A model generated the notes under the pieces. The model ran no database searches. It worked only from the letters and a program-made list of their open reading frames with translations, and was not told the DNA's origin. A stretch of 64,000 nucleotides of DNA. Source: Fluviicola sp. Lineage in GTDB: Bacteria; Bacteroidota; Bacteroidia; Flavobacteriales_D; Crocinitomicaceae. Position numbers and translations under genes: made by a program. Each line of letters starts with the position of its first letter. The stretch's first letter is position 1. This document shows positions 50,786 through 64,000 of this stretch, one piece after another. Location: positions 62,001 to 126,000 of the forward strand of contig JARWZO010000019.1 in assembly GCA_029866325.1 (NCBI GenBank). The letters run 5' to 3'.

Positions 50786-50942
50786 GGTTGAAACAAGACA
50801 CATAATATTATGATTTTATGTGGCGAATCTTCCTCGTAAATTCATGATATTATGTGGGATTATTTACTCAGATGATTACGTTTATATAACATCACCAAAA
50901 CCCATTCAACGAACGTTTCTTGTTGATTTGGCGAGCTTTTTT
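50786..50942 (+). repeat. Flanking direct repeat, copy A (about 155 bp)
   Basis: Begins GGTTGAAACAAG and ends GAGCTTTTTT. It aligns almost without gaps to 51571-51726, with strongest identity over the first 110 bp. It contains an inverted repeat (arms 50799-50818 and 50837-50856, 2 mismatches). The two copies bracket the DUF433/DUF5615 pair. Confidence 0.85.
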
Positions 50943-50960
50943 ATTGAAAATAAAATTCTC

Positions 50961-51188
50961 ATGAGAGATTACAAGGAAATCATTACTATCGAAGTCGGTA
51001 AGCTCGGCGGAAAGCCTACAATTAGAGGTATGAGAATCAGTGTGGGTGATATTCTGAATTGGCTTGCTTCGGGAATGACAATACCTGAAATACTAGCAGA
51101 CTTTGATGAGTTGACACAAGAAGATATTTTCGCAGCACTCAGTTATGCTGCTGATAGAGAAAACAAAATCTACCAGATTGCTGTATGA
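50961..51188 (+). CDS. DUF433 family antitoxin-like protein
   Basis: A 75-aa winged-helix-like protein: GKLGGKPTIRGMRISVGDIL, NWLASGMTIPEILADFDELT, DIFAALSYAADREN match DUF433, commonly the antitoxin-like partner of PIN-like DUF5615 proteins. The start at 50961 (MRDYKEIITIE) follows the family; the longer frame from 50820 is repeat DNA. Its stop overlaps the ATG of the toxin remnant (ATGA). The gene looks intact. Confidence 0.85.
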   Translation: MRDYKEIITIEVGKLGGKPTIRGMRISVGDILNWLASGMTIPEILADFDELTQEDIFAALSYAADRENKIYQIAV

Positions 51189-51512
51189 GATTACTCTTTG
51201 ATCAGAATACTTAGCATTCTGTCAGACGAGTCTGCAGATTCTACTACCGTAAAGAAAGAAAATCTCATCGATAGCTCAGATAAATCAATTTGGGAATTTG
51301 CAAGAAAAGCCAATTATCTAATCGTAACTCAAGATTCGGATTTCAATGACTTGAATTCTCTTTAAGGATTTCCACCAAAAATAATATGGATTCGAACCTG
51401 AAATATCAGAACTGAAGAATTAGCAACCATTTTGAAAACTCATTTTAAAGAAATTCAAGATTTCGAGAAGAATCCTAATTACGGGTGTTTTGAAATCTTA
51501 ACTTTGAAGTAG
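51185..51512 (+). pseudogene. Degraded DUF5615 (PIN-like) toxin
   Basis: The start codon overlaps the DUF433 stop. Reading gives MRLLFDQNT then a TAG at codon 10, where an intact member would continue with a conserved S-H segment. After a frameshift the frame resumes as SIWEFARKANYLIVTQDSDF, runs to a TAA in place of a coding codon before GFPPKIIWIRT, meets a TGA, and ends NIRTEELATILKTHFKEIQD up to a TAG at 51510-51512. Three in-frame stops and a frameshift make it a pseudogene. The PIN-like conserved D and R are still recognisable. Confidence 0.85.
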
Positions 51513-51570
51513 CATATCATTGCGCTTCAGTTACACAAGAGCTTATTTTATTGAGATCGTTAGTTTTACC

Positions 51571-52317: not shown

Positions 52318-53397
52318 TTATCTATCCAAACAATCCAACGGGCTTTTTACTTTAGAAAGTTGTTGAGAAGAAACGCGTGCATAGATTTCGGTGGTTTTGA
52401 TTTGCTTGTGCCCGAGCAGTTTTTGAATGAACAACATATCGGTTCCGACTTCCAATAAATGAGTTGCAAAACTATGACGCAAGCCGTGAATTCCGATTTT
52501 TTTTGTGATTCCGGCTTTAGTGAGGCATTGCTTAAAGACAGCTTGTGCACTTCTTGTAGAATATGCTCCGCCGAATTGTCCTTCAAACAAGTATTTTTTC
52601 GGTTGAAATGCCATTAGATAATCAGCATACAATTGTTGGATACTTTCTGGCAAATTCACGTATCGATCTTTCTTTCCTTTCGCATTTCTGATATGGACTT
52701 GTTTCCGATCAAGGTCTATGTCACCTATTTCAAGAGCAATCAATTCACTTACGCGTAACCCCATTCCGTAGGCCATTTTGAGTAGCAATAAATGCTTAAA
52801 ATTATCGGTTTGAGCGAAGAGTCGTATGATTTCTTGTTTGCTTAAAACAGTTGGCAACGTTATAGGAGCTTTTGGTCGGATAACCGTATCAAACACCGAT
52901 TCTTTGTTCATGACTAGCTTGAAATAACACTTCACAGCATTCATACGGCTATAAACTTGATTTTCAGAATGGTTCAATTTTTTAATGCAATAGAGAAAAT
53001 AACTATTGAGTTGCTCGGAAGTCAATTCAAGCACCGGTTTTGCTTTGATGAGAATTAGTAGTTGCGCAAATTCACTTAAATAGGTCTCGACGGTGTTTTT
53101 AGAAAACATTTTTTGTTGCAACACATCTCGAAACTTCCTGAATTCGATTTGATTTACGCTATACATTCGATCCATGTATTTGATGCCTTGTTCGGGTAAC
53201 TGAATCCCTAGCCGCTTTCGATACAGCGTATTATCAGGCACAAACCAAGCTTTATTGGTTCTAGACCATTTGGCTGAAGGAAATGCATTTCGAAAGTCTT
53301 TCAACAATTTCGGATCATACGGAAACAGGCAAAAAATCACTTGTTGATTGCGATGTTGGGCGTGTTTGAATGTGAGCTTTTGCGCGTCGAAGTCCAT
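52318..53397 (-). CDS. Tyrosine recombinase, integron-integrase-like (XerC/D type)
   Basis: A 359-aa site-specific recombinase. Residues 1-75 are an extra N-terminal module with a KAWFVPDNTLYRKRL pattern, found in many Bacteroidota recombinases; residues 83-170 are a SAM-like core-binding domain; the rest is catalytic, with R215 (GLRVSEL), K240, H304-x-x-R307 (HGLRHSFATHLLE), H330 (LLGHKQIKTTEIYA) and nucleophile Y339. The end KVKSPLDCLDR resembles integron integrases. Only about 92 residues separate the two arginine boxes, so the IntI-specific insertion is absent. It is transcribed away from the array. Confidence 0.9.
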   Translation of the reverse strand: MDFDAQKLTFKHAQHRNQQVIFCLFPYDPKLLKDFRNAFPSAKWSRTNKAWFVPDNTLYRKRLGIQLPEQGIKYMDRMYSVNQIEFRKFRDVLQQKMFSKNTVETYLSEFAQLLILIKAKPVLELTSEQLNSYFLYCIKKLNHSENQVYSRMNAVKCYFKLVMNKESVFDTVIRPKAPITLPTVLSKQEIIRLFAQTDNFKHLLLLKMAYGMGLRVSELIALEIGDIDLDRKQVHIRNAKGKKDRYVNLPESIQQLYADYLMAFQPKKYLFEGQFGGAYSTRSAQAVFKQCLTKAGITKKIGIHGLRHSFATHLLEVGTDMLFIQKLLGHKQIKTTEIYARVSSQQLSKVKSPLDCLDR

Positions 53398-53499
53398 TTG
53401 TGAAAAAATAAAGTGAATATAGTGTAAACAAATGATTATTAAAAATACGTAATTATAATATCTTTACTTCATTGGCTATGAAAGGATTCTATAGATTTA

Positions 53500-53530
53500 T
53501 TTGAATATACAAAAAAGATGGTTAATTTCA
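53500..53530 (+). promoter_or_regulatory. Candidate cassette promoter (Pc-like)
   Basis: TTTG at 53500-53503, 19 bp, then TAATTTCA at 53523-53530 (six of eight bases of TAnnTTTG). Transcription would begin near 53537 and read into cassette 1. It lies between the recombinase gene and the attI-like junction, where an integron Pc is expected. Position is better evidence than sequence. Confidence 0.4.
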
Positions 53531-53535
53531 TCAAT

Positions 53536-53556
53536 AATTAAGTTATGTGCAACTGT
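53536..53556 (+). other. attI-like recombination junction
   Basis: GTTATGTGC starts at 53542, 145 bp upstream of the recombinase ATG. Its nine bases are exactly complementary to GCACATAAC just before the first 126-nt repeat (54208-54216). This is the predicted crossover G|TTA where cassette 1 joined the resident site. The recombinase-binding core sites of a true attI cannot be defined by eye. Confidence 0.6.
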
Positions 53557-53583
53557 TGCGTTTAACCTATAATTATTGTACAT

Positions 53584-53985
53584 ATGAAAAATAAAACATA
53601 CTGTTTTTTGATTTCACGGATTATCATTTGTTGTACTTTCTTTTATTTTAATGGAATTTCTCAATCTGTATTAGTGCCAAACATAGAATATACAATCGAT
53701 TCCAAAAAGCTAATTGGTGAATGGCATCGGATAGATTCGAGTAGCGACAATATTCGATTTACAGAACAAGGTCGTTTTCTATCGTTGAGTGGAGCTCCCT
53801 TTAACGATGGCTTCCAATTTGAAAAAGATACGACAGGTAATATTAATTCAGCTTCCGGTTTTGTTCACTGGCCTCCTGTCTATTGCAATTTATATTTTCC
53901 ATCCAAGGATACGTTGCATGTAATAAGCTATTCGAGTATGTATGGCAGAATTGCAGACCACTTATATGTAAAAGCTACAAAGTGA
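53584..53985 (+). CDS. Cassette 1: small secreted hypothetical protein
   Basis: A 133-aa protein with a signal peptide (SRIIICCTFFYFNGISQS). The mature part (KKLIGEWHRIDSSSDNIRF, TEQGRFLSLSG) resembles small lipocalin-like beta-barrels through GEW and the strand pattern. It starts 41 bp after the attI-like junction. About 225 bp of AT-rich DNA separate it from its repeat, which leaves room for a lost gene; nothing is recognised there. Confidence 0.7.
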   Translation: MKNKTYCFLISRIIICCTFFYFNGISQSVLVPNIEYTIDSKKLIGEWHRIDSSSDNIRFTEQGRFLSLSGAPFNDGFQFEKDTTGNINSASGFVHWPPVYCNLYFPSKDTLHVISYSSMYGRIADHLYVKATK

Positions 53986-54212
53986 TTTGTTATACTTTTA
54001 AATTGAAGATCAGAAGTAGGATAGCTTCAGTTAACAAAACAACTATTTCAGCGGCAACCAATCGAAAGACCAGTAACGACAACGCTATAAAATTGCTTAG
54101 TTGACTAAAAGTACCTTATAGAACGATGATGAAATAATAAAAAGCAAAGCACTAAACAATAAATAAAGACAGACAAAAGCAAACTAAACGAGGTGAAAAA
54201 TACAGCAGCACA

Positions 54213-54338
54213 TAACACGGGTTTGGCAAAAGTGGCGGTTCAGTGCTCCGCAGACACATTTGTGGTTAAACAAAGTTTGGTTCTCCGCATCAACATTTGT
54301 GGTGAAAATCGCCACCTTCGCCAAGCCCGAAACCGTTA
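54213..54338 (+). repeat. attC-like element 1 (126 nt)
   Basis: Runs from TAAC to GTTA. The stem CGGGTTTGGC / GCCAAGCCCG (10 bp, one G-T) and the inner stem GTGGCG / CGCCAC flank a large central region. The right side carries extra unpaired AAACC before GTTA, as the asymmetric unpaired bases of attC sites do. The centre contains a 21-nt direct repeat (54246-54266 and 54283-54303, CTCCGCA-N3-ACATTTGTGGT). Crossover is inferred between 54335 and 54336. Confidence 0.8.
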
Positions 54339-54373
54339 GTGGCAATTTTACAGAGACAGCGTAACAAAACAAA

Positions 54374-55756
54374 ATGACGACAATTGAACAACTATATCAA
54401 ACTTTAAGTGAACGCAGACGACCAGAAGACGTTGCGGAAATGGTTATTGAATTGACAAAAGACAGTTTAACAACCAAAGAAAGACTTCTTTTAGAAAAAG
54501 CAGCTAAAGGTTCATTAGCAAGAAATGTTTTTGGCTATACTTCAATGCTACAAACTTTCGCTGAAGCTAAAGGAGCAGGAAAACAAATTGCCAAAGCCAT
54601 AGAAATTTTCAAACTTAACAACAAAAATAAATCTGACTATAATAATCAAAAAGACATAGAGGAATTTATCAATTTTGCTTCGCCAATTATTCGTAAAACG
54701 GCAGGAAAAAATGATTTTAAAGCTGACAGACTTAATAAATCACAGAGAAAAGAAAGTGGACTTGATTTATCTAAACGTAACTATAACAAAAAGTGGCGAC
54801 TGCTTACCCGAATAGAAAATAAATTGCTGAAATTTATTAGAGAAAGTAAAAAAATAGAATTTCAAAAAATTGCAAAACACGGTTTAGCACATTCCTTGGA
54901 TTTTACAAATTTCTCGTCAGACATAAACACGGCTTGTTTTATTGCTTATTATAATTCACGTTGCAATCTTAGAAGTGTTTTTACAAATCAAAGTCAAGAC
55001 AGACCATTTGACGAAATAAGTGAAATGCTTCTGAACAGATGTAAAGGAGAAGAAACTAAATTCTTTGACTTTTTTAGAAAAGCTAAAACAGAAAAACCAA
55101 ACAATACAAATTGGTGGGCAATATCACATATTTATACGAGTCAAGCAGTTTTAATGAACTTAACAGACGAGCAAAAAGGAATGTTGTTAGGTAAATGGAC
55201 AACTATTTTGCAAGATATTGCAGAATTATTAGACGAGGTTTGGGCAATAAGCAATATCAATAGAGAAACAATGGTTGTGAAGAGAGGCAATGACTCTACA
55301 ACTTGGAATAATACCGCAGGAGCTTGGAATAAAGCAAGAGATAATTGGATGAATTTAATTTATTCGTTAGGCTTAGATTATATTCTTGAAGAAATTTGTT
55401 TCGGTAAGGTATTACGACTTATGGCAGCCGATGTAGTTGCTTGGCATTTTTCGACAGGCGGAAAACTCGACCCAAACACAGAAGTATGGAACAAGATACC
55501 TTTGCCTTGGGAAGTATTCCAAAATAAAACAGAATGTAACAAAGAATTAGTAATTAAATATTGTAAGCAAGCAGGACTTGACCCAGAAAAATCAGGTTGG
55601 ATAGCACCAAGAGTTCACGGAGTAGCAGAATTTAAACCTACACCCGAACTTGTTCACGGAGTTACAGTTTCCAATCCGTTTTTGGCGACAGTTTTAAAAA
55701 GACATAGATATTTTTCAGGAAAAAATGCAAAACCATTATTCCCTGAAAGAAATTAG
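54374..55756 (+). CDS. Cassette 2: 460-aa protein of unknown function
   Basis: A 460-aa, mostly helical, soluble protein without signal peptide. It opens with MTTIEQLYQTLSERRRPEDV. The segment NTACFIAYYNSRCNLRSVFT with FDEISEMLLNRCKG looks conserved-like, and the C-terminal third has W-rich stretches (TTWNNTAGAWNKARDNWM; LPWEVFQNK). I do not recognise a family and see no nuclease, kinase or HEPN motif. The last base of its stop codon is the first base of the following tRNA, so gene and tRNAs form one unit. A tRNA-related or defence role is only a guess from that context. Confidence 0.75.
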   Translation: MTTIEQLYQTLSERRRPEDVAEMVIELTKDSLTTKERLLLEKAAKGSLARNVFGYTSMLQTFAEAKGAGKQIAKAIEIFKLNNKNKSDYNNQKDIEEFINFASPIIRKTAGKNDFKADRLNKSQRKESGLDLSKRNYNKKWRLLTRIENKLLKFIRESKKIEFQKIAKHGLAHSLDFTNFSSDINTACFIAYYNSRCNLRSVFTNQSQDRPFDEISEMLLNRCKGEETKFFDFFRKAKTEKPNNTNWWAISHIYTSQAVLMNLTDEQKGMLLGKWTTILQDIAELLDEVWAISNINRETMVVKRGNDSTTWNNTAGAWNKARDNWMNLIYSLGLDYILEEICFGKVLRLMAADVVAWHFSTGGKLDPNTEVWNKIPLPWEVFQNKTECNKELVIKYCKQAGLDPEKSGWIAPRVHGVAEFKPTPELVHGVTVSNPFLATVLKRHRYFSGKNAKPLFPERN

Positions 55757-55828
55757 GTAGGTTAGTTCAGTGGTAGAACGTTCGGCTCTTCACCCGAATG
55801 GACGTAGGTTCGAGCCCTACACCTATCT
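55756..55828 (+). tRNA. tRNA with 8-nt anticodon loop (possible quadruplet CUUC)
   Basis: It folds fully: acceptor GGTAGGT/ACCTATC (7 pairs, one G-T), D stem GTTC/GAAC with loop AGTGGTA, anticodon stem TTCGG/CCGAA, variable TGGAC, T stem GTAGG/CCTAC with loop TTCGAGC. The anticodon loop is CTCTTCAC, eight bases. Keeping T33 and A after the anticodon gives the four-base anticodon CTTC. The discriminator is T and no CCA is encoded. Amino acid unassigned. Confidence 0.8.
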
Positions 55829-55833
55829 CGGAT

Positions 55834-55905
55834 TCTGATATAGCTCAGTGGTAGAGCGTCCGGCTCTGGACCGGATGGACACAGGTTCGAGCCCTGTTAT
55901 CAGAA
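55834..55905 (+). tRNA. tRNA-like gene, anticodon CUG (Gln?)
   Basis: Acceptor TCTGATA/TATCAGA is fully paired; D stem GCTC/GAGC; anticodon stem TCCGG/CCGGA with 7-nt loop CTCTGGA gives anticodon CTG; T stem ACAGG/CCTGT with loop TTCGAGC. The T1-A72 pair is compatible with some tRNA-Gln. It shares D loop, variable loop and T loop with the tRNA just upstream, 5 nt away, so they are duplicates with different anticodon arms. The position after the anticodon is G, not A, so charging identity is uncertain. Confidence 0.8.
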
Positions 55906-55930
55906 CAAACGGCAGACAAAAAACTGCCAC

Positions 55931-56056
55931 TAACACGGGTTTGGCAAAAGTGGCGGTTCAGTGCTCCGCAGACACATTTGTGGTTAATCAAAGTTTGGTT
56001 CTCCGCGTCAACATTTGTGGTGAAAATCGCCACCTTCGCCAAGCCCAAAAACGTTA
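55931..56056 (+). repeat. attC-like element 2 (126 nt)
   Basis: Nearly identical to element 1 (a few substitutions, including AAGCCCAAAAACGTTA at the right end, which weakens the outer stem). TGCCACTAA just before and including its left end is the exact complement of TTAGTGGCA at the start of cassette 2. Crossover is inferred at 56053|56054. Confidence 0.8.
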
Positions 56057-56111
56057 GCAGTAAGCGTAAGACAGACCACCAACAAACTTACGAATGACAT
56101 CAAAACTGTTA

Positions 56112-57035
56112 TTATCCGACAACAAGAACAACTTTACCATTGACACCACCAGCCGAGACAAAATCTTGTGCTTTTGCAGCTTCTTCCAATTTGAAAGTTT
56201 TTGCAACAAAGGGTTTTAATTTTCCTTCACTAACCAAAGTCAATCCATATTCCAAACTTTTTGCCGACAAATTAGATGAAATAAATCGGGCATCGACATT
56301 GTATTTTTCTGCCAACTCTGCTGACGGCATACCAGCAATACTTAATAATTTACCGCCTGACTTTAATACTTCAAAAAGTTTAGCTTGTGTTTCGCCACCT
56401 GCACAATCTGCAACCAAATCAACATCTTTAATAAGAGTGGACACGTCTTGTGTTTTGTAATCAATCACTTCATCTGCACCAAGACTTTTAACTAACTCGA
56501 CTCCTTTTCCTGATGCTGTTGCAATTACATAAAGACCTTTGTTTTTGGCAAGTTGTAACATTGTTGCTCCAACCGAACCAGCAGCACCTTGAATTAAAAC
56601 TTTTTGACCTTTTTCTAATTTACCTTCGGTAAACAAAATAGTTTGTGCAGTACCAATATTTACTGCCAATGAAGTGGCCTCTTCAAATGAAATGTTTTTT
56701 GGTTTCAATGAAACAAAATTCTCGTTTGCTACAACATATTCAGCATAAGCATTTCCCATAGTTGCAACTATCACTTCATCACCAACCTTGCATCGAGTAA
56801 CGCCAGTTCCAACAGCAATAATAATTCCTGACGCATCTAAACCCGGAGTAAAAGGCAATTTAACAGGTCGCATTTTTTGCATATATCCCATTCGTATTTT
56901 CATATCTAAAGTATTAATGCTGGCGGCTTTAACTTGAATTAAAACTTCATTTTCACTTTTAATCTCGGGGGTTGAAATTTGCACCAAGTTTATTACTTCT
57001 GAGCCTCCAAAGGCATTGTATTGTATTGCTTTCAT
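56112..57035 (-). CDS. Cassette 3: NADP-dependent quinone-oxidoreductase-like MDR enzyme
   Basis: A 307-aa medium-chain dehydrogenase/reductase without zinc sites. It has GGSEVINLVQISTPEI, the conserved GLDASGIIIAVGTGV, the NADP-binding AAGSVGATMLQLAKN and the YGLTL end. Likely reduces quinones or enones. It is oriented against the array, in line with three further genes starting at 58747. Confidence 0.9.
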   Translation of the reverse strand: MKAIQYNAFGGSEVINLVQISTPEIKSENEVLIQVKAASINTLDMKIRMGYMQKMRPVKLPFTPGLDASGIIIAVGTGVTRCKVGDEVIVATMGNAYAEYVVANENFVSLKPKNISFEEATSLAVNIGTAQTILFTEGKLEKGQKVLIQGAAGSVGATMLQLAKNKGLYVIATASGKGVELVKSLGADEVIDYKTQDVSTLIKDVDLVADCAGGETQAKLFEVLKSGGKLLSIAGMPSAELAEKYNVDARFISSNLSAKSLEYGLTLVSEGKLKPFVAKTFKLEEAAKAQDFVSAGGVNGKVVLVVG

Positions 57036-57047
57036 GTATTTGATTTT

Positions 57048-57932
57048 TTATTGTTTATTAAAAAAGATTATCATGTCATCGCTTAATTCTTCACAGCCTT
57101 TTCCAAAACTAAAAAAGCCATGTGCCGCACCATCATAAATTTTGAACTCAATATCTTTGAATTTTTTACCAATATGTTCTGCCCAAATTTTTGAAGAACG
57201 TAATAATTTATCATTACCTGCACCTACGACAAACAAAGGTGGTAAATTTTCAATATGTTCAAAATCCATCGGAAACAATGGAATATTAGGTGTTGCAGTA
57301 TTTTCCACATACACTTTACTAAATAGTTTGGCACTCGGAAAACCATCTTCAATCCAAGACATTCTATCATTTACACCAAAAATATCTACAACACTTTTGA
57401 TTTTTGGTAAATCATTTACGTCAACCGTATCAAGCATTTTTAATAATTCAGGATTTGAAATGTAAATACCTAACATCATTGCCAAATTACCACCAGCCGA
57501 ATCGCCAATTAAATGTATAGTTGAATATTGAGGGTAATTTTTCTTAATCCAAACCAGCGCCTTTACTAATGAGCGCAACAAATACGGGTGTTGCTGCTCA
57601 GGTGCTAACGGATAATCAAGGCTAAAAATGGGATAACCTTCATTTGAAAATTTCGTTAACGGTTTTGAATAGAAATTACCTTTGCTTCCTGCAACCCAAG
57701 CACCACCGTGAATGTGAACAATCGCAATTTGTTTTTGGCTTTCCTTATTCGGAGCAATGAAATCCAACTTTTCATTTTTTAGACTTCCATAAGAAAACTC
57801 TTTTACAATGATACTGTCAGGATATTTTTTCCCACCAATTTTAGCTATTAAAGGCATCATCATATTTCGCCAAAAGAAAACACCTGCTTTATTTCCAAAA
57901 GTTATTTTTACTTGATTTTGTGTTTGTGACAT
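57048..57932 (-). CDS. Cassette 3: alpha/beta hydrolase (HSL-type esterase)
   Basis: A 294-aa esterase/lipase. HIHGGAWVAGSKG is the HGGA oxyanion motif; the nucleophile elbow is GDSAGGNLAMML; the catalytic acid is in PLFVVGAGNDKLL and the His in YDGAAHGFFSF. No signal peptide. 12 bp upstream of the oxidoreductase start, so co-transcribed. Confidence 0.92.
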   Translation of the reverse strand: MSQTQNQVKITFGNKAGVFFWRNMMMPLIAKIGGKKYPDSIIVKEFSYGSLKNEKLDFIAPNKESQKQIAIVHIHGGAWVAGSKGNFYSKPLTKFSNEGYPIFSLDYPLAPEQQHPYLLRSLVKALVWIKKNYPQYSTIHLIGDSAGGNLAMMLGIYISNPELLKMLDTVDVNDLPKIKSVVDIFGVNDRMSWIEDGFPSAKLFSKVYVENTATPNIPLFPMDFEHIENLPPLFVVGAGNDKLLRSSKIWAEHIGKKFKDIEFKIYDGAAHGFFSFGKGCEELSDDMIIFFNKQ

Positions 57933-57975
57933 TTAATTTGTTTTTTCTATTAAGGTAAATTATTTTTATACGGTT

Positions 57976-58359
57976 CTATTTTTGGTTGGAGGTTTGTTTC
58001 TTATGTGCCAAAAAACAAACTGCGATTATAACCGTTTCGGCAACTAAAGGGACAATGAAATCATTTGACCAGCCATCAGCAATGATGCTTATAATTCGCC
58101 CAAAAATAACAACAGCCATCATCAAAATTGTGGCAATAAACCAAGTTGAGTTCTTTGTTAAAACTCCAATGATCATCATGAACCCACTACCCAAAAGTAA
58201 TCCGCCTATAACTCCTCGAATCGTATTTGAGCCAAATACGCCTAAAGGTTGAAGTTGAAACATGTCAGTGTGGCTTGATTGGACAAACATGGCCAATACA
58301 CCTAAAATTATTAACGGAATTGAGAAAAACAATACCAACATTTTAATACCTGTTTTCAT
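57976..58359 (-). CDS. Cassette 3: DUF4345-like membrane protein
   Basis: A 127-aa protein with four membrane segments. The motif GSNTIRGVIGGLLLGSGFMM is typical of DUF4345-like small membrane proteins. It lies in the same - strand operon, 1 bp from the 128-aa gene. Function unknown. Confidence 0.75.
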   Translation of the reverse strand: MKTGIKMLVLFFSIPLIILGVLAMFVQSSHTDMFQLQPLGVFGSNTIRGVIGGLLLGSGFMMIIGVLTKNSTWFIATILMMAVVIFGRIISIIADGWSNDFIVPLVAETVIIAVCFLAHKKQTSNQK

Positions 58360-58360
58360 A

Positions 58361-58747
58361 TTAATTAATTTTTAAAGTTCTAGTAACCGTTTCTACTGTA
58401 TCAAGCACCTCTTCATTGAAACAAATTTTTGCTCCAATAGCATGTTCATGAATTATATTTATTAATGTTTCCAATAATCGTAACTGGTCTGGACGTTTGC
58501 GTAAACCTGCACCTACCAAAATACAATCGAATTGATTTGCTAAAAGCTCAGTCGATAATGCTTCTGAAGCATTGTTAGATGTGATGTCTATATAACACCA
58601 TTTGGCATCATAGCGCATTGCAATAAGATTATCTTTCGCAATCACTGACTGTCGGTGAATTTCGGCTGGGTCATATCCAGGAATGTTGCTGTTAAGAAAT
58701 TTTGAAGTATCAACTCCAATTAACAGTACTCTATTTTTTATATCCAT
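58361..58747 (-). CDS. Cassette 3: Rossmann-like hypothetical protein
   Basis: A 128-aa soluble protein. VLLIGVDTSKFLNSNIPGYD and FDCILVGAGLRKRPDQLRLL fit a small beta-alpha-beta fold found next to HxlR regulators in other bacteria. No catalytic site is recognised. It is the first gene of the - strand operon and diverges from hxlR. Confidence 0.7.
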   Translation of the reverse strand: MDIKNRVLLIGVDTSKFLNSNIPGYDPAEIHRQSVIAKDNLIAMRYDAKWCYIDITSNNASEALSTELLANQFDCILVGAGLRKRPDQLRLLETLINIIHEHAIGAKICFNEEVLDTVETVTRTLKIN

Positions 58748-58763
58748 AATTATTATTTTTTGC

Positions 58764-58846
58764 TTGACATTGCAAATGTAACTTACTTAGTATATATTTG
58801 CTACTTAGTAGCAATAAAATACAAGTAGTTTTTAAGATACTTACTA
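58764..58846. promoter_or_regulatory. Divergent control region with phased HxlR operator-like sites
   Basis: The 9-bp palindrome TACTTAGTA occurs at 58784-58792 and 58802-58810, exactly 18 bp apart, and a variant TACTTACTA at 58838-58846, 36 bp further. The second lies in the longer palindrome TTGCTACTTAGTAGCAA (58798-58814). A + strand promoter, TTG (58770-58772), 20 bp, TATATTTG (58793-58800), lies between the first two sites, so a bound dimer would cover it. Confidence 0.65.
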
Positions 58847-58858
58847 TAAAATCAACAC

Positions 58859-59197
58859 ATGGAAGTAAAAAATAAACAGCAAGGAATCAAGGTTGTTGGC
58901 GATGTTTTAGACATTGTTGGGGGGAAATGGCGTGGACAAATTCTTGCCCATCTTTGCGACAATCCAAAACGCTTCAACGAACTAAAAACAGTTTTAAATC
59001 GAATTACATCTTCAACGTTGACAAAAGAATTGCGTTATTTGGAAGACATAAAAATGGTTGAAAGAAAAGTAATTCAAGAAACGCCAATGGTAGTAGAATA
59101 TAGACTAACAAAACATGGAATGTCAATAAAAGACCTAATTAAAACCATAGTTGAATGGGGACTTAAACACAGAGAAATTGTATTTAAAAAGAACTAG
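58859..59197 (+). CDS. Cassette 3: HxlR family transcriptional regulator
   Basis: A 112-aa winged-helix protein. VLDIVGGKWRGQILAHLCDN, RFNELKTVLNRITSSTLTKEL, LEDIKMVERKVIQETP and VVEYRLTKHG form the typical HxlR layout. It diverges from the four-gene oxidoreductase/hydrolase operon and probably represses both. One cassette therefore carries its own control. Confidence 0.93.
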   Translation: MEVKNKQQGIKVVGDVLDIVGGKWRGQILAHLCDNPKRFNELKTVLNRITSSTLTKELRYLEDIKMVERKVIQETPMVVEYRLTKHGMSIKDLIKTIVEWGLKHREIVFKKN

Positions 59198-59227
59198 TAT
59201 GCGGACAGAAGTAAAAACGCCTACTGC

Positions 59228-59353
59228 TAACACGGGTTTGGCAAAAGTGGCGGTTCAGTGCTCCGCAGACACATTTGTGGTTAATCAAAGTTTGGTTCTC
59301 CGCATCAACATTTGTGGTGAAAATCGCCACCTTCGCCAAGCCCGAAACCGTTA
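59228..59353 (+). repeat. attC-like element 3 (126 nt)
   Basis: Almost identical to element 1. TACTGCTAA at its left end is the exact complement of TTAGCAGTA at the start of cassette 3 (56054). Right end GTTAGCGG. Crossover is inferred at 59350|59351. Confidence 0.8.
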
Positions 59354-59441
59354 GCGGTCATTGTAGAGCGCACGAAGAATATTGAACATTTGTGCCTCTA
59401 ATTCCCATTTTTCTCAAATCTATAAACCGTTATATATCGTT

Positions 59442-60035
59442 ATGAAAAACACGTCAGACATAGAAAATGCAATAGAAACCATTAGTGAAAATTATTCTCT
59501 CTTGACAGCCGACTGTAAAAGCGATTTAAAGAACTCTTGTAGATTATTAAATCTTGAAAAATTATCCATAATTGTAAAGGAAGGACAGTTTGCGGACAAA
59601 ATGTATTTTATTGTTAGTGGTTGCGTAAGAGCATTTTACCATAAAGATGACAAAGAAATTACAGATTGGTTTGCTTTTGAAGGCGATTTTATGAGTTCTA
59701 TAAACAGTTTCTATCAAAACGTATCAAGCAAACACAATATTGAATTACTTGAAGAAACTACTTTTTTAGAAATAACAAAAGAAACAATTTTCAGACTTAC
59801 AGAAAAACACCATTGTTTTGAGCGATTAGGGCGAATTGCGGTAACGAAAACAATGCTTCAACTACAAGAAAGAATAGTTTCTATTCAGTTTGAGACCGCA
59901 CAACAAAAATATGAAAGTCTGATAAATATGCGTCCTGATATCACACAAAGAGTGCCACTAACATTTATCGCATCTCATTTAGGTATAACTCTTGAAACTT
60001 TAAGCAGAATTCGTAATCCCAAAAATCGAATTTGA
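59442..60035 (+). CDS. Cassette 4: Crp/Fnr family transcriptional regulator
   Basis: About 197 aa. The cyclic-nucleotide-binding-like domain (EGQFADKMYFIVSGCVRAFY; EITDWFAFEGDFM) is followed by an HTH ending with THIASHLGIT-like TFIASHLGITLETLSRIRN. Start 59442 (MKNTSDIENAIE) is preferred; the upstream extension is weak. It probably controls the membrane genes after it. Effector unknown. Confidence 0.85.
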   Translation: MKNTSDIENAIETISENYSLLTADCKSDLKNSCRLLNLEKLSIIVKEGQFADKMYFIVSGCVRAFYHKDDKEITDWFAFEGDFMSSINSFYQNVSSKHNIELLEETTFLEITKETIFRLTEKHHCFERLGRIAVTKTMLQLQERIVSIQFETAQQKYESLINMRPDITQRVPLTFIASHLGITLETLSRIRNPKNRI

Positions 60036-60122
60036 TTTACATCAAATAGGTTTCGCTACTTTTTATAGACCTTTGCGAACCAATAAAAATGGAAATTTTA
60101 AAAAACTAACAACTAATCTATC

Positions 60123-60551
60123 ATGAAAAACACAACTATATTTAAAGTCGGTACGTTAGCTCCTGTTATACTTGGTATAATGCATCTCCTAGGTCATATA
60201 GTGTCTGGGGAATTCGATGTCAAAGACACGGGATTAATTCAAGATATGCAAAACTACAATTTACAATTCATGGGTGCACATAACGTCTTAAAATTCTACA
60301 ACGGATTCAGCATCACAATGGCTTTTTTGATTTCAGCTTTTGGTATCCAATGCTTATTGCTTACGGAGGAAATTTTACTTAATAAAAAAGCACACTATTC
60401 GTTAATCGCTATTACCGCAATTGAATTTATACTGGCTCTATTATATTTTCCAATTTTCGTGTTTAGCACTTTTCTTTTCGCAATACTTTGTTTCGTCATT
60501 GCTTTGAGAAAAAATAAAAACATTGAACAGCAAACAACAAAAATAATATGA
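60123..60551 (+). CDS. Cassette 4: small membrane protein 1
   Basis: A 142-aa protein with four membrane segments (TLAPVILGIMHLLGHIVSG; TMAFLISAFGIQCLL; YSLIAITAIEFILALLYF; FLFAILCFVIAL). It resembles the LIC_13387-like small membrane family by layout, but this is a guess. The stop overlaps the next start by 4 bp (ATGA). Confidence 0.65.
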   Translation: MKNTTIFKVGTLAPVILGIMHLLGHIVSGEFDVKDTGLIQDMQNYNLQFMGAHNVLKFYNGFSITMAFLISAFGIQCLLLTEEILLNKKAHYSLIAITAIEFILALLYFPIFVFSTFLFAILCFVIALRKNKNIEQQTTKII

Positions 60552-60946
60552 ACATAGCAATTTTAATAGCAAACATTCTGACACTTTTAGCCTTTGTAAT
60601 CCACACTTTTGTGGGAGACAAAGAGTTGAAAATAAACGCACCACAAGACCAAATAGACGACAACTTTCAAAAAATAGAAAAATGGACAATGGCAAGGTGT
60701 GGCTGGCATTGGGTTTCATTTGACTTACTTTTTGCAACAATCGGACTTGGACTGATTAACTTTACCAACCACTTTGAAAATGAAAAAACGTTGTTACAAA
60801 TACTAACAATATACTTTTTAGGCTATGCAGTGGTTTGGGCTCTGACAATTGCCATTTCAAAACAGTTTCCGAAAAATTATTTGAAACTCGGACAGTGGAT
60901 TTTACTGTTGCTCATTAGCGGACTTATTTACTTTGGAACAAATTAA
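60548..60946 (+). CDS. Cassette 4: small membrane protein 2
   Basis: A 132-aa protein with four membrane segments. The soluble turn WTMARCGWHWVSFDLLFATI has a conserved-looking W-C-x-W-H-x-x-S. Co-translated with the previous gene. Function unknown. Confidence 0.65.
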   Translation: MNIAILIANILTLLAFVIHTFVGDKELKINAPQDQIDDNFQKIEKWTMARCGWHWVSFDLLFATIGLGLINFTNHFENEKTLLQILTIYFLGYAVVWALTIAISKQFPKNYLKLGQWILLLLISGLIYFGTN

Positions 60947-60954
60947 TATGAATT

Positions 60955-61374
60955 ATGCTTAAACTAGGAGGATACATAAACATACTAATTGCAGCTGCTC
61001 ACATTATTGGGCTACTTTGGGCGGACAAAATGTTTGAAGTAACAGGCGTTGGTAACGAAATGACCAAACTTGCTCAAACTCATTCTTCTTTGCCCTATTT
61101 ATTGACGCTATTTGTTTCAGTTGTGTTTTTTATTTTTGGCTTGTACGGTCTTTCAGCTAGTAACAAATATAGAGAACTGCCATTTTTAAAGCCAGTAGTT
61201 TTTCTAATTGCGGGAATTTATTTACTGCGTGGAATTGGCGAACTCATTTTTGATTTAGAAAAACAACAAGCAAATCAATTTTGGGAAATAATCTACTCAC
61301 TAATTGCAGTTTTTATTGGACTTTTGTTCTTTATTGGTGGACTAAAAAAATGGAAGATAAATGGAGGTAAATAA
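60955..61374 (+). CDS. Cassette 4: small membrane protein 3
   Basis: A 139-aa protein with four membrane segments (INILIAAAHIIGLLWADKMF; LPYLLTLFVSVVFFIFGLYG; KPVVFLIAGIYLLRGIGELI; IYSLIAVFIGLLFFIGGL). The gene overlaps the next by 14 bp. Function unknown. Confidence 0.65.
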   Translation: MLKLGGYINILIAAAHIIGLLWADKMFEVTGVGNEMTKLAQTHSSLPYLLTLFVSVVFFIFGLYGLSASNKYRELPFLKPVVFLIAGIYLLRGIGELIFDLEKQQANQFWEIIYSLIAVFIGLLFFIGGLKKWKINGGK

Positions 61375-61753
61375 ATCAGCGTATATAAAAATATTAACAA
61401 GCATTTCAATAGTTGCTGTATTATTTCATATTTCAATTTTAATGAAAATAGTACCGTATGAAATTACTTGGGGTGGGAAGTTGAAAACGGATAACGAAAT
61501 GTATGTTTTTGAAATTATCTCTATTTTGATAAACTCATTTTTTATTTTTATGCTTTTACTTAAAGGAGATTATATAAAATCGTTTTTTAGTAAGAAATCC
61601 GTTTCAATTATTTTATGGATCTTCTTTGTAATTTTTGTTTTAAATACAATTGGTAATTTATTTGCAAAGACAACTTTTGAAAAAGGTTTTACAATTTTGA
61701 CATTAGTAAATTCAATCCTATTGTGGAAAATAAATAAAACAACGAACCGCTAA
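61361..61753 (+). CDS. Cassette 4: small membrane protein 4
   Basis: A 130-aa protein with about four membrane segments and a lysine-rich turn (LKGDYIKSFFSKKS). Its TAA stop is the TAA of the TAAC that opens the next attC-like element, as happens when a cassette gene ends in its attC. Confidence 0.65.
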   Translation: MEVNKSAYIKILTSISIVAVLFHISILMKIVPYEITWGGKLKTDNEMYVFEIISILINSFFIFMLLLKGDYIKSFFSKKSVSIILWIFFVIFVLNTIGNLFAKTTFEKGFTILTLVNSILLWKINKTTNR

Positions 61754-61779
61754 CAGCACCTACCCAAAAGTGGCGGTAC
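61751..61779 (+). repeat. Truncated attC-like element 4
   Basis: Begins TAAC and keeps CAAAAGTGGCGG from the left half of elements 1-3, but the usual right half and GTTA are missing. ACCGCTAA at its left end is complementary to TTAGCGGT at the start of cassette 4. It is a decayed or fused site. Confidence 0.65.
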
Positions 61780-61846
61780 TGTTGTTCAGTAAATTTTGTA
61801 TGTTTAGGAAGTTTAATCAATTAGAAGAACAGCAAAATTATCTCTT

Positions 61847-62377
61847 ATGATGTCAATGGATGAATTCAAAAAACTTTTTTTTCAAACGGGCGAAAACTCT
61901 AAAATAGCTGCTCTTGTAGGCATGTCTATTGGTATACTCGGCTGTATTACTTTTCTCGTAATGGGCTATAGTATTTATGGAGCAGCTGCGTTTGCATTCC
62001 TCGCAGTGTCTGGAGCATATGGTTATTATTTGAACATCAAACAAGAGGCTCGAATGAAGAGTGGTCACCCTTTGATTAAAGCAATGGAGGCTGGTAATTC
62101 TGATTACATCAAGTGGTTTTATGTCACGGTTTTAACACACAAGCAAACCATCAAAGCGGCTAATTTTAAGACGTATTATATTGATGCTTATGATGATAAA
62201 AAGAATGTTTTGGACATTGGTTTAAAGGATGAAGAGGAATGCGATCGAATGGCGGCATTATTAGCATCAAAGTTCCCGGATGCCGTTCAAGGTTTTTCAG
62301 AGGATATTCGGTTGGAGATGATCTTAAAATATAATTATAAAGGAATCAAGGATCGATATGAGCCCGCAGGTGATTGA
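61847..62377 (+). CDS. Hypothetical protein with two membrane segments
   Basis: A 176-aa protein. Two adjacent hydrophobic segments (IAALVGMSIGILGCITFLVM; YGAAAFAFLAVSGAYGYYL) precede a soluble domain of about 110 residues with TYYIDAYDDKKNVLDIGLKD. Not recognised. An ATG two codons downstream is an alternative start. Confidence 0.6.
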   Translation: MMSMDEFKKLFFQTGENSKIAALVGMSIGILGCITFLVMGYSIYGAAAFAFLAVSGAYGYYLNIKQEARMKSGHPLIKAMEAGNSDYIKWFYVTVLTHKQTIKAANFKTYYIDAYDDKKNVLDIGLKDEEECDRMAALLASKFPDAVQGFSEDIRLEMILKYNYKGIKDRYEPAGD

Positions 62378-62424
62378 CACGCAGGTGATTTTACGCAATC
62401 TATACTAAAGACCTGATTTCGATT

Positions 62425-62826
62425 GTGAAACAAGCAAAAAATAGTAATGAATTGGTTAAAGGAGATGTAAGTGAATTCATTGATTTATTTGGTAAAGATT
62501 TTAAATCGCAAAAACATAAAGTTGTGGTATCAGAACAAAGCACTCTAGATGATTCAATCAAAAATCACCTTATGATTAAAGAAGATGCAATAAAAATAGC
62601 GCAAGAATACATTGATAACAGTTTCAATATGCACGCATCTATTACAGGTCGTGCACAATATATGAATGAATGGGTAATGGATGCGAATTTACATACCGTT
62701 GACCACCCTGTTTGGATAGTGTTTGCCGAAAATCTTAAAACAGGTCCTTTTATAGATGGCGTGAATGAATATTCAATTGTTGTAAGTACCAAAACAAGAA
62801 AAGTTGAAGATGTTAGATTAACGTAA
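62425..62826 (+). CDS. Hypothetical protein with GTG start
   Basis: A 133-aa soluble protein. The C-terminal half (IKIAQEYIDNSF; HPVWIVFAENLKTGPFID; NEYSIVVSTKTRKVEDVRLT) looks like a PepSY-like or small immunity-type alpha/beta domain. The GTG at 62425 is the only reasonable start. Not recognised. Confidence 0.55.
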   Translation: MKQAKNSNELVKGDVSEFIDLFGKDFKSQKHKVVVSEQSTLDDSIKNHLMIKEDAIKIAQEYIDNSFNMHASITGRAQYMNEWVMDANLHTVDHPVWIVFAENLKTGPFIDGVNEYSIVVSTKTRKVEDVRLT

Positions 62827-62889
62827 ACTGAAACGATTTGCAAAATGGTATTTACTTTATTGTAATCGCAGAAAAATAAAACGAAATGC

Positions 62890-62960
62890 TAACATCAACT
62901 AAAAGCCACAGGCTGAACAACTTTAACCAAGAAGCCGCGTCTCCTAGTTGAGAACAGTTA
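62890..62960 (+). repeat. Possible short attC-like element 5 (71 nt)
   Basis: TAAC and GTTA ends; inner arms CAACTA / TAGTTG pair with 2- and 6-nt spacers. The size and layout fit a canonical attC. The end complementarity seen for cassettes 1-4 could not be shown for it, so confidence is low. Confidence 0.4.
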
Positions 62961-62974
62961 CACAATTGACCGGA

Positions 62975-63580
62975 ATGGAAAAACAACTAAAAAGAGTGAT
63001 TTTATCAATGTTCATGATGATAACTTATGTTGTCATAGGACAAAAGGATTCTTCTTACTCCTTTATTGTTCATGTTAATACCGTTTATGGCGACTTAAAC
63101 AAGGATGGTCTTATTGATGTCGCCACTGTTACTCAAGATACATTAAATGAAAACGCTCCGTATAAATTGGACATCTTCTTTAAACAACCAAATGGAGATT
63201 TAAAACTGATTACATCATCTATAAAAGCAATCGGCCCTCAGTTTCCAAATGGCAGAGAAAGCCATACGTGGGGAGATGGATTCGGTCAATTAAGTATTCA
63301 TAATGGAGTGCTATGGATTGAAACAGGATTTATTCGGGGACACATGGAGCATAAATTTCGATATCAGAATGATAAATTTGAACTTATCGGGTATAGCTTT
63401 GCTAATGTTACCGCGGGTCAAATAACAATTATTGACTATAATTTATCTACGGGTAAAAGAATTGTGAAAGAAGGAGCAATCAGTGATGATGACTACAAAG
63501 TGACAGAGGATAAAATCATTAAACTTAATCCGTTACCAAGTCTTGATGAATTTGAACCCTATGTGAATGACTTGTATTAA
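62975..63580 (+). CDS. Secreted hypothetical protein with Ca-binding-like motif
   Basis: About 201 aa. Start 62975 gives a signal (LKRVILSMFMMITYVVIGQ). The motif YGDLNKDGLIDVATV is an EF-hand/FG-GAP-like D-x-N-x-D-G-x-x-D loop; the rest is beta-rich. Its TAA stop directly abuts the TAAC of the next 126-nt element. Confidence 0.65.
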   Translation: MEKQLKRVILSMFMMITYVVIGQKDSSYSFIVHVNTVYGDLNKDGLIDVATVTQDTLNENAPYKLDIFFKQPNGDLKLITSSIKAIGPQFPNGRESHTWGDGFGQLSIHNGVLWIETGFIRGHMEHKFRYQNDKFELIGYSFANVTAGQITIIDYNLSTGKRIVKEGAISDDDYKVTEDKIIKLNPLPSLDEFEPYVNDLY

Positions 63581-63706
63581 TAACACCGGTTTGGCTAAAC
63601 GCCTTTAATCTCGCTTCGAAAACCGATTTTTATGAAAGAAAACAATCTAACTTCGGGTTTGTGTTTATTTTTAAAAGTCGGCACGCCGCCAAGCCAGAAA
63701 CCGTTA
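63581..63706 (+). repeat. attC-like element 6 (126 nt, divergent core)
   Basis: Same length and ends as elements 1-3 (TAACACCGGTTTGGC at the left, GCCAAGCC-AGAAACCGTTA at the right), but the central 90 nt are unrelated. Inner arms such as CCGATTTTTA / TAAAAGTCGG pair. Crossover is inferred at 63703|63704. Confidence 0.75.
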
Positions 63707-63746
63707 GCAGCTAATTATTTGACAGGTAGTAACTTAAAAAATAACT

Positions 63747-64000
63747 ATGGACAAGACCGAAACAACTTTTGACATCATCAGATTCACCGGCGACAAAACG
63801 CTTTATTACGGAGCTTCTATTGAAATGCCCGACATTCTACTCGAGGCAAGAAACTATAAGAAACATACTGAAGTAAATATTCCACTTGGACACTCACGAT
63901 ATGGTGGACCCATTGTTGACTTACCGACTGGTGTTGAGTATCCACAAGGACTTTTTTTCGCTGCTCAACTTGACCTTTCTAAGTTTTCGCCCTTTGACAA
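63747..64000 (+). CDS. Partial DUF1963/YwqG-like protein (3' end outside window)
   Basis: The frame is open from the ATG at 63747 to the window end. MDKTETTFDIIRF opens it; PIVDLPTGVEYPQGLFFAAQ followed by LDLSKFSPFD resembles the conserved FxAQ-x-DL of DUF1963 (YwqG). Start lies 43 bp after the crossover of the preceding repeat, as for other cassette genes. Only 84 residues are visible. Confidence 0.7.
   Translation, partial: MDKTETTFDIIRFTGDKTLYYGASIEMPDILLEARNYKKHTEVNIPLGHSRYGGPIVDLPTGVEYPQGLFFAAQLDLSKFSPFD

What the first reader, a model, noticed from the sequence alone, without database searches (positions are those of the whole stretch)
55756..55905. Two tRNA genes in a cassette, one with an 8-nt anticodon loop
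Both fold into full cloverleaves and share D, variable and T loops. The first has loop CTCTTCAC, which keeps T33 and a purine after a four-base CTTC, as in +1 frameshift-suppressor tRNAs; the second has anticodon CTG. Neither encodes CCA. A mobile tRNA pair could support translation of foreign cassettes, act as a decoy for anticodon nucleases, or suppress frameshifts.
Basis: partly seen in the sequence, partly recalled or inferred. Interest (0 to 1): 0.87.

Follow-up and report, generated by a model that had tools for sequence, protein, structure and literature searches.

The report
Protein gene with hypervariable-loop tRNA-like pair
Two tRNA-shaped genes in a mobile DNA cassette turn out to be the regular companions of an uncharacterised protein gene across bacteria, plasmids and large phages, and their anticodon loop is the part that changes most, so they look like RNA partners or decoys and not ordinary translating tRNAs.

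Summary
In detail: two cloverleaf genes (55756-55828, 8-nt loop CTCTTCAC; 55834-55905, loop CTCTGGA), no encoded CCA. The frameshift-suppressor reading is not supported. The pair belongs to the preceding gene (54374-55756, 460 aa, no curated family). Of 28 related genome loci, 25 carry 1-2 such cloverleaves downstream; L043 has an intact gene with a fused remnant, L057 is cut by its contig end, L058 is decayed. All 5 plasmid loci opened (of 7) and all 13 viral loci have them. Backwards, 8- and 9-nt-loop patterns hit 9 IMG/VR contigs, all encoding the protein; in 395 Bacteroidota genomes protein and pattern fall in the same two. Of 83 cloverleaves kept beside the gene, 79 show GG-CUC...CC, with loops of 5-9 nt that vary while the stems covary and the body is conserved. 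Loops resemble real anticodon loops, displaced by an extra C when the anticodon begins with U or G (moderate support). Best reading: a mobile protein plus non-decoding tRNA-like module, perhaps an anticodon-loop decoy. Function was not tested.

The parts
54374..55756 (+). 460-aa protein gene, the regular partner of the tRNA-likes; stop codon TAG 55754-55756 shares base 55756 with tRNA-like 1
   Evidence: ORF; conserved family; no match over a curated cut-off in Pfam or NCBIfam and none at E 0.1 in PADLOC or PHROGs; dN/dS 0.068 and 0.075 against two Sphingobacterium relatives
55756..55828 (+). tRNA-like 1, loop CTCTTCAC at 55786-55793 (8 nt), A-1:U73 possible eighth acceptor pair
55834..55905 (+). 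tRNA-like 2, loop CTCTGGA at 55864-55870 (7 nt), U-1:A73 possible eighth acceptor pair
54213..54340 (+). attC-like site of the preceding cassette (GTTAG at 54335-54339)
   Evidence: direct repeat family D1; sequence
55931..56058 (+). attC-like site that closes this cassette (GTTAG at 56053-56057); about 54336-56053 would be the mobile unit by the integron rule (recalled)
   Evidence: (fold of 55925-56065: z -4.72)
52318..53397 (-). tyrosine recombinase of XerA/integron-integrase type at the head of the attC-like array
   Evidence: Pfam Phage_integrase; NCBIfam NF040815 199.7 bits (cut-off 220) and TIGR02249 179.2 bits (cut-off 265), both under the cut-off

Best explanation
A mobile two-component module: a mostly helical protein of about 430-460 aa and, as a rule, one or two tRNA-like RNAs on the same strand that are its non-decoding RNA partners. 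Shown by sequence: the tight linkage in both directions, the cloverleaf with a probable eighth acceptor pair, the constant GG-CUC...CC anticodon arm and the variable rest of the loop. Inferred: the protein binds the constant anticodon arm and the T/D elbow, so that the complex displays a loop that imitates a real anticodon loop (commonly Glu, Gln, Lys or Pro), with the anticodon pushed one base 3' by the constant C after U33. Such a complex could act as a pseudo-substrate that occupies or blocks enzymes that attack anticodon loops (anticodon nucleases of toxins or defence systems), the variable loop being tuned to the local threat. My confidence in the non-decoding partner part is about 0.8; the figure below is for the whole statement including the decoy function.
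For: Linkage: tRNA-like(s) downstream in 25 of 28 genome loci, the nearest within 22 nt of the gene in 24 of these and 219 nt away in L050; in 5 of 5 plasmid loci opened, of 7 found; in 13 of 13 viral loci, two of them with identical downstream sequence. Reverse linkage: the 8-nt-loop pattern hit 6 IMG/VR contigs and the 9-nt pattern 4, together 9, all with the protein, whereas 6 of 7 hits of the 7-nt pattern show no such gene in the stretch fetched and carry CAT anticodons. In 395 genomes of the phylum protein and pattern fall in the same 2. Signature: 79 of 83 cloverleaves kept, against 25 of 374 other tRNAs. Structure: 98.4% paired, 254 double-change cells against 75 in shuffles, -1:73 a standard pair in 34 of 42. 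Body conserved, loop variable; Chryseobacterium species with one body carry different loops. Mimicry: 6 of 9 distinct 7-nt loops equal an ordinary C34 loop in register (shuffle mean 0.86, 0 of 20000; column permutation p 0.01); 7 of 21 distinct 8-nt loops equal an ordinary loop one base later (shuffle mean 1.7, p 0.0003; column permutation p 0.07), 2 of 21 in normal register. In family viral loci CCA follows 2 of 22 tRNA-likes but 11 of 26 ordinary tRNAs. RNA-repair genes lie near some copies.
Against: No expression, binding or phenotype data. L043 has an intact gene but only one fused remnant of the two RNAs, so the protein can persist without an intact partner. The mimicry is marginal for 8-nt loops under column permutation (p 0.07); matches of the triplet alone carry no signal (20 of 21, shuffle mean 20.0); several registers and word lengths were tried without correction; for 9-nt loops two registers fit equally (4 of 9 each); loops such as TCACT, TGATC and GATTT match no ordinary loop. 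Distinct loops are not independent lineages. Free loop positions may vary merely for lack of constraint. The host has no match to the one anticodon-nuclease family searched, PF13166. No PADLOC match for the window protein and one weak match (E 0.035) among 27 members. RNA-repair neighbours are usual near phage tRNA arrays (recalled) and were found among 20 proteins that I chose. Many residues of the protein are invariant, more than a passive scaffold would need.
Confidence: 0.45

Rival explanations
1. Tripwire: the complex is a sensor. The displayed loop is bait; when an anticodon nuclease cuts or damages it, the bound protein, an enzyme, is switched on (repair, dormancy or cell death).
For: Same facts as for the decoy; dense invariant residues in the protein (around DSxTWN, KxxRLMAxD....H and TPELVxGV) suggest catalysis; RNA-repair genes near some copies.
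Against: No recognised catalytic fold in PDB searches and no Pfam domain over cut-off in the window protein; phages as well as bacteria carry it.
Confidence: 0.2
2. The protein is an enzyme that acts on its own tRNA-likes (modification, 3'-end chemistry or amino-acyl transfer), which serve as dedicated substrates or carriers.
For: Enzyme-like conservation; a probable eighth acceptor pair that alters the acceptor end.
Against: Does not explain why the anticodon loop is the variable part, nor why N73 and the 3' flank differ between relatives with one body.
Confidence: 0.13
3. The variable part of the loop is a short guide that pairs with a target RNA or DNA, the tRNA body being the handle.
For: Constant handle plus variable loop of changing length beside a protein.
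Against: Only 2-6 variable bases in the 79 scored; they resemble natural anticodon loops more than their own shuffles.
Confidence: 0.09
4. Ordinary decoding: quadruplet (+1 frameshift) suppressors or extra isoacceptors.
For: Good cloverleaf, T33, canonical elbow; C34 plus a natural anticodon could read codon+G.
Against: Loops of 5-9 nt, and 14 nt in one, in one RNA family; N73 of all four kinds on one body, C in 28 of 79 against 0 of 56 host and 11 of 280 other viral tRNAs; host already has Glu(ttc), Lys(ttt), Gln(ttg) and Pro(tgg) tRNAs; does not explain the protein linkage.
Confidence: 0.08
5. Decaying or hitch-hiking tRNA genes, or mere 3'-end processing signals of the protein mRNA.
For: Position right after the stop codon in most genome loci; broken copies in L043 and L053.
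Against: Covariation, conserved bodies beside a protein gene with dS of about 1, upstream position in L083, L091, L092, L094 and L096 and, by eye, L061.
Confidence: 0.05

Closest known systems
Bacterial Ro60 (Rsr) with Y RNA / YrlA
   Same: A protein gene beside RNA genes with a tRNA-like domain, linked to RNA repair. [quoted passage not shown]
   Different: No TROVE match in any of 27 members at E 0.1; full cloverleaf with a variable anticodon loop.
Phage tRNAs with altered anticodon loops proposed to escape host anticodon nucleases (PMC10264068, abstract and passages)
   Same: Anticodon-loop changes in phage tRNAs, proposed to counter anticodon nucleases.
   Different: Those are held to remain decoding tRNAs; the ones here are tied to one protein family, with constant C34, loops of changing length and variable N73.
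Quadruplet-decoding (+1 frameshift suppressor) tRNAs (recalled)
   Same: 8-nt anticodon loop with T33.
   Different: Loop length not fixed, tied to a protein gene, no conserved discriminator base.
tmRNA with SmpB (recalled)
   Same: tRNA-like RNA with a dedicated protein partner.
   Different: Full cloverleaf with an anticodon arm; ARAGORN reports no tmRNA in the window.
Uncharacterised giant-virus proteins A0A3G4ZSE3 (Edafosvirus) and A0A5K0U9D9 (Yasminevirus)
   Same: Predicted fold matches the model (Foldseek E 2.4e-14 and 2.9e-12, TM 0.63 and 0.62 by query length, rmsd 10.9).
   Different: 15-17% identity, about 100 residues longer, no named function; their surroundings were not examined.

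Membership tests
Ro60/TROVE-Y RNA system | TROVE domain (PF05731, accession recalled) | tested here: not met
   TROVE is not among the 11 families matched by any of 27 members in Pfam at E 0.1
Ro60/TROVE-Y RNA system | Ro60 ring fold | tested here: inconclusive
   model of pLDDT 85.3 has no PDB match at E 0.001 and best VIA Z 6.1, to a designed protein; absence from the lists does not exclude it
Ro60/TROVE-Y RNA system | RNA with tRNA-like module encoded beside the protein gene | tested here: met
+1 frameshift-suppressor tRNA | 8-nt anticodon loop as a stable trait | tested here: not met
   79 relatives: 54 of 8 nt, 15 of 7, 9 of 9, 1 of 5; 14 nt in L061 by eye
+1 frameshift-suppressor tRNA | aminoacylation and decoding | not testable with these tools
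   no RNA data
Functional tRNA (isoacceptor) | cloverleaf with canonical D and T loop signals | tested here: met
Functional tRNA (isoacceptor) | consistent discriminator base within one RNA lineage | tested here: not met
   Bacteroidota copies of tRNA-like 2 have A, G, C or T at position 73
Integron gene cassette | flanking attC sites in an array | tested here: met
   141-nt repeats with TAAC and GTTAG ends around the cassette (integron motif recalled); array continues past the window
Integron gene cassette | IntI-type integrase | tested here: inconclusive
   TIGR02249 179.2 bits, under its cut-off of 265

The most novel reading that the evidence does not exclude
A new class of protein-RNA system in which the RNA is a tRNA look-alike with an exchangeable anticodon loop as its specificity element: each mobile copy shows a displaced copy of a chosen anticodon loop (C inserted after U33 when the anticodon begins with U or G) to capture, block or sense enzymes that read or cut that loop, carried by integrons, plasmids and large phages, with a protein fold for which the only clear structural matches found here are uncharacterised giant-virus proteins.
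Probability: 0.35. Interest if true: 0.92.

Novelty: categorically new. Interest (0 to 1): 0.83.

Why it matters
ARAGORN lists these genes as tRNAs of unknown isotype or as tRNA-Gln and the like, and the plasmid records call the protein hypothetical, so a widespread two-part system stays hidden. If the decoy or sensor reading is right, it would be an RNA-based weapon or shield in the conflict over anticodon loops, whose target could change by a few bases, and it would explain one set of natural '8-nt anticodon loop' tRNAs without frameshifting.

Tried and rejected
Function from known families: the 460-aa protein has no match over a cut-off in Pfam or NCBIfam and none at E 0.1 in PADLOC or PHROGs. 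Over 27 relatives, 11 Pfam families each match one member, best E 0.0028 (Phage_TAC_3, window protein, 18.7 bits against a cut-off of 22), and one PADLOC model matches one member at 0.035; I take these as chance. PDB sequence searches gave only hits at E 0.43 or worse. The first AlphaFold model was poor (pLDDT 69.9), the second, with viral relatives, good (85.3). Neither has a PDB match at E 0.001; Ro60 does not appear in those lists, which excludes nothing.

Annotated phages: no match for the window protein or for two viral relatives; an early IMG/VR scan with the window protein alone also found none. The viral copies therefore rest on IMG/VR contigs, some of which may be misassigned. The genome scan reaches close relatives only and is not a census.

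Other shared genes: apart from the protein and from clusters that I read as antisense to it, the widest clusters lie within Chryseobacterium (up to 9 loci); an HxlR-like regulator (name by my reading) recurs in 5 loci and a RlaP-like gene in 4. I found no third constant part.

My first mimicry test was circular, because tRNA-likes called by ARAGORN had entered the reference; one search leaves out all family loci and is the one cited. Its reference of 337 tRNAs repeats some genes, but the test uses distinct 5-mers. Nearest ordinary tRNA by body gives no single isotype (Met 32, Asn 21, Val 11 of 79; 69-74% in the 15 cases printed). Promoter and terminator scans were uninformative for the window and L041. 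In L088 a 13-pair terminator-like hairpin (5535-5565) follows the second tRNA-like, though 2 such sites against 1.3 in shuffles is no excess. The -1:73 pair is Watson-Crick in 52 of 79 tRNA-likes (20.6 expected if independent), but also in 32 of 56 host and 90 of 280 other viral tRNAs, so I rest on the double changes; one of the five measures there, pairs with a change on both sides (15 against 13.3), is not clearly above its shuffles (48 of 500). PF13166 has no match in the host. Paper searches listed no description of this module; the library holds open-licence PMC papers only and matches words only. PMC7609411 and PMC7824862 were seen in passages; the latter speaks of ROT/TROVE proteins with a tRNA-like partner in jumbo phages.

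Rows left out or limited: the script looked at the gene's strand only, 330 bases upstream and about 450 downstream, and gave 95 rows; 12 with low scores and non-CTC loops were dropped, and 4 of the remaining 83 (ordinary tRNAs of L088 and L094) lack the signature. Because rows of low score were kept only with a CTC loop (L095, L097), the 79 are partly chosen by it. They are 69 distinct sequences from 44 loci; L041 and L065 have identical genes over the stretch compared. L061, one copy of L091 and the second copies of L095 and L097 were read by eye and are not in the 79. L053 lacks the first 150 or so residues of the gene and L054's frame is broken; both keep tRNA-likes and are among the 25. 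Plasmid hits H4 and H5 were not opened. The exact patterns reached 9 of the 13 viral loci.

Full report
What is there. At 55756-55828 and 55834-55905 are two cloverleaf genes, confirmed by ARAGORN and Rfam. The first has the 8-nt loop CTCTTCAC, the second the 7-nt loop CTCTGGA. They follow without a gap an open reading frame of 460 codons (54374-55756), whose stop codon shares base 55756 with the first cloverleaf. Three 141-nt attC-like repeats at 54213, 55931 and 59228 (the others 91% and 96% identical to the first) and a tyrosine recombinase at 52318-53397 make this a cassette of an integron-like array, with further matches up to 8.5 kb beyond the window. The protein gene and both cloverleaves share one unit of 1718 bp.

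The pair belongs to the protein. A scan of a collection with one genome per species found 28 loci that encode close relatives, 54-87% identical, in Bacteroidota and one Acidobacteria MAG. In 25 of 28 ARAGORN finds one or two cloverleaves downstream, two in 22 of them, mostly with four-base 'anticodons'. The nearest lies within 22 nt of the gene in 24 of the 25 and 219 nt away in L050. Of the other three, L043 has an intact gene followed by one fused remnant of both cloverleaves, L057 ends with its contig inside the gene, and L058 is a decayed gene without cloverleaf. Two of the 25 have damaged genes, L053 (first 150 or so residues missing) and L054 (frame broken), and keep tRNA-likes. The protein occurs on 7 plasmids of Streptomyces, Hymenobacter and Miltoncostaea. 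I opened 5: four have ARAGORN cloverleaves downstream; in the fifth, 28% identical, I read one upstream by eye with a 14-nt loop CTCTTTCCGACATT. In IMG/VR a pattern of the D arm plus CCGGCTC hit 22 stretches, 3 of which encode the protein beside the cloverleaf; the others were fetched only in part. The protein profile found 10 further viral loci. All 13 have cloverleaves of the signature, upstream or downstream; L095 and L097 share identical downstream sequence.

The link also holds backwards. A pattern for an 8-nt loop hit 6 IMG/VR contigs and one for a 9-nt loop hit 4, together 9 distinct contigs; every one encodes the protein. The same pattern with a 7-nt loop hit 7 contigs: 6 show no such gene in the stretch fetched and carry CTCATAA or CTCATAC loops, that is, CAT anticodons. 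A 10-nt pattern hit none. In 395 genomes of the phylum, the host among them, protein and 8-nt pattern each occur in 2, the same two; the pattern read backwards occurs in none.

Anatomy of the RNAs. My script kept 83 cloverleaves beside family genes; 79 have GG before and CC after a loop that begins CTC, and the other four are ordinary tRNAs of phage arrays. The 79 are 69 distinct sequences from 44 loci. Among 374 other tRNAs in the fetched loci, a set that may hide a few tRNA-likes, 25 have this signature. Loop lengths are 54 of 8 nt, 15 of 7, 9 of 9 and 1 of 5 (which may be read as 6), in 38 distinct sequences. In 42 aligned relatives, chosen for spread, 98.4% of stem cells pair, with 254 double changes against 75 in shuffles; sliding the partners by one column drops pairing to 43-46%. 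Position -1 pairs with 73 in 34 of 42, with both sides changed in 21, a probable eighth acceptor pair. N73 is C in 28 of 79 but in 0 of 56 host and 11 of 280 other viral tRNAs. In the family viral loci CCA follows 2 of 22 tRNA-likes and 11 of 26 ordinary tRNAs (Fisher p 0.02).

The loop is the most variable part. In Bacteroidota copies the mean entropy per position for tRNA-like 2 is 0.13-0.17 bit in the two body halves, 0.24 in the anticodon stem and 1.31 in the free part of the loop; for tRNA-like 1 it is 0.16-0.27, 0.45-0.58 and 1.09 (gaps count as a state, which raises the loop values). Four Chryseobacterium loci with one identical body carry CTCTTCAT (twice), CTCTTCTT and CTCTCTT; for the three of these compared, the protein gene has dS of 0.87-1.42 and dN/dS of 0.065-0.081. 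Free loop positions could vary simply because they are unconstrained. Two facts speak for constraint: the CUC at the start of the loop is constant, and the variable part looks like real anticodon loops. With all family loci removed from the reference, 6 of 9 distinct 7-nt loops equal an ordinary loop at positions 34-38 (shuffle mean 0.86, 0 of 20000; column permutation p 0.01). Of 21 distinct 8-nt loops, 7 equal an ordinary 34-38 when read one base later (shuffle mean 1.7, p 0.0003; column permutation p 0.07), against 2 in the normal register. Triplets alone show no excess, 9-nt loops fit two registers equally, and the tests are not corrected for their number. So 7-nt loops tend to show anticodons that begin with C, and 8-nt loops anticodons that begin with U or G behind an extra C. 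Of 56 8-nt genes, the triplet after CTC is Glu UUC in 18, Gln UUG in 11, Lys UUU in 10 and Pro UGG in 5 (counted). The window's first loop is the Glu loop UUCAC behind CUC; the second, CTCTGGA, can be read as Gln CUG in register or as Pro UGG displaced.

The protein. It is under purifying selection and has dense invariant residues, among them those around DSxTWN, KxxRLMAxD....H and TPELVxGV. The AlphaFold model is good (pLDDT 85.3, pTM 0.84) and mostly helical. It has no PDB match at E 0.001 but matches two uncharacterised giant-virus proteins. Near three copies (L061, L091, L095) lie RlaP nucleotidyltransferases, near L061 also RNA ligase and PTH2, and near L089 a Thg1 (20 neighbours tested, chosen by me).

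How it most likely works. The linkage, the constant arm and the free loop point to a complex in which the tRNA-like is a partner of the protein and not a decoder. Decoding is hard to reconcile with loops of 5-9 nt (14 in one) in one RNA family and with N73 of all four kinds on one body; the host also has ordinary tRNAs for the same codons. Because the loop imitates anticodon loops with a displaced anticodon, and carriers include phages, plasmids and an integron, I think a pseudo-substrate or decoy for anticodon-loop enzymes is the likeliest function, with a tripwire sensor next. Nothing here tests function. A similar idea has been put forward for YrlA, the tRNA-like partner of bacterial Ro60 (PMC7790460, passages), and phage tRNAs are proposed to escape anticodon nucleases by loop changes (PMC10264068, abstract and passages). 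By Pfam the protein is not a TROVE protein, so it may work like that system without being a member.

Novelty. Ten paper searches listed no description, within an open-licence library searched by words only. I rate it categorically new as a system, with the function open.

Noticed in passing
52318-64000: Integron-like array in a Bacteroidota genome headed by a XerA/integron-integrase type recombinase under both NCBIfam cut-offs; attC-like repeats at 54213, 55931 and 59228, partial ones near 61765 and 63687, more beyond the window and two look-alikes elsewhere in the genome.
   Followed up: partly
56054-59350: The next cassette unit (about 3.3 kb) holds several genes on the opposite strand (alcohol dehydrogenase-like, alpha/beta hydrolase and others), large for one cassette.
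   Followed up: no
50820-51530: DUF433 gene followed by a reading frame that starts MRLLFDQNT and soon meets stops; perhaps a decayed DUF433 toxin-antitoxin pair (pairing recalled).
   Followed up: no
L043:4311-4500: Chryseobacterium indologenes locus in which the 5' half of tRNA-like 1 is fused to the 3' half of tRNA-like 2, as if by recombination between the T arms, beside an intact protein gene.
   Followed up: partly
L068: One viral contig carries four cloverleaves of this signature around the protein gene, with loops CTCGGGA, CTCTTCAT, CTCTTAC and CTCATAA.
   Followed up: partly
L089:2214-2924: A Thg1-like tRNA-His guanylyltransferase gene two genes upstream of the family gene in a viral contig.
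   Followed up: no
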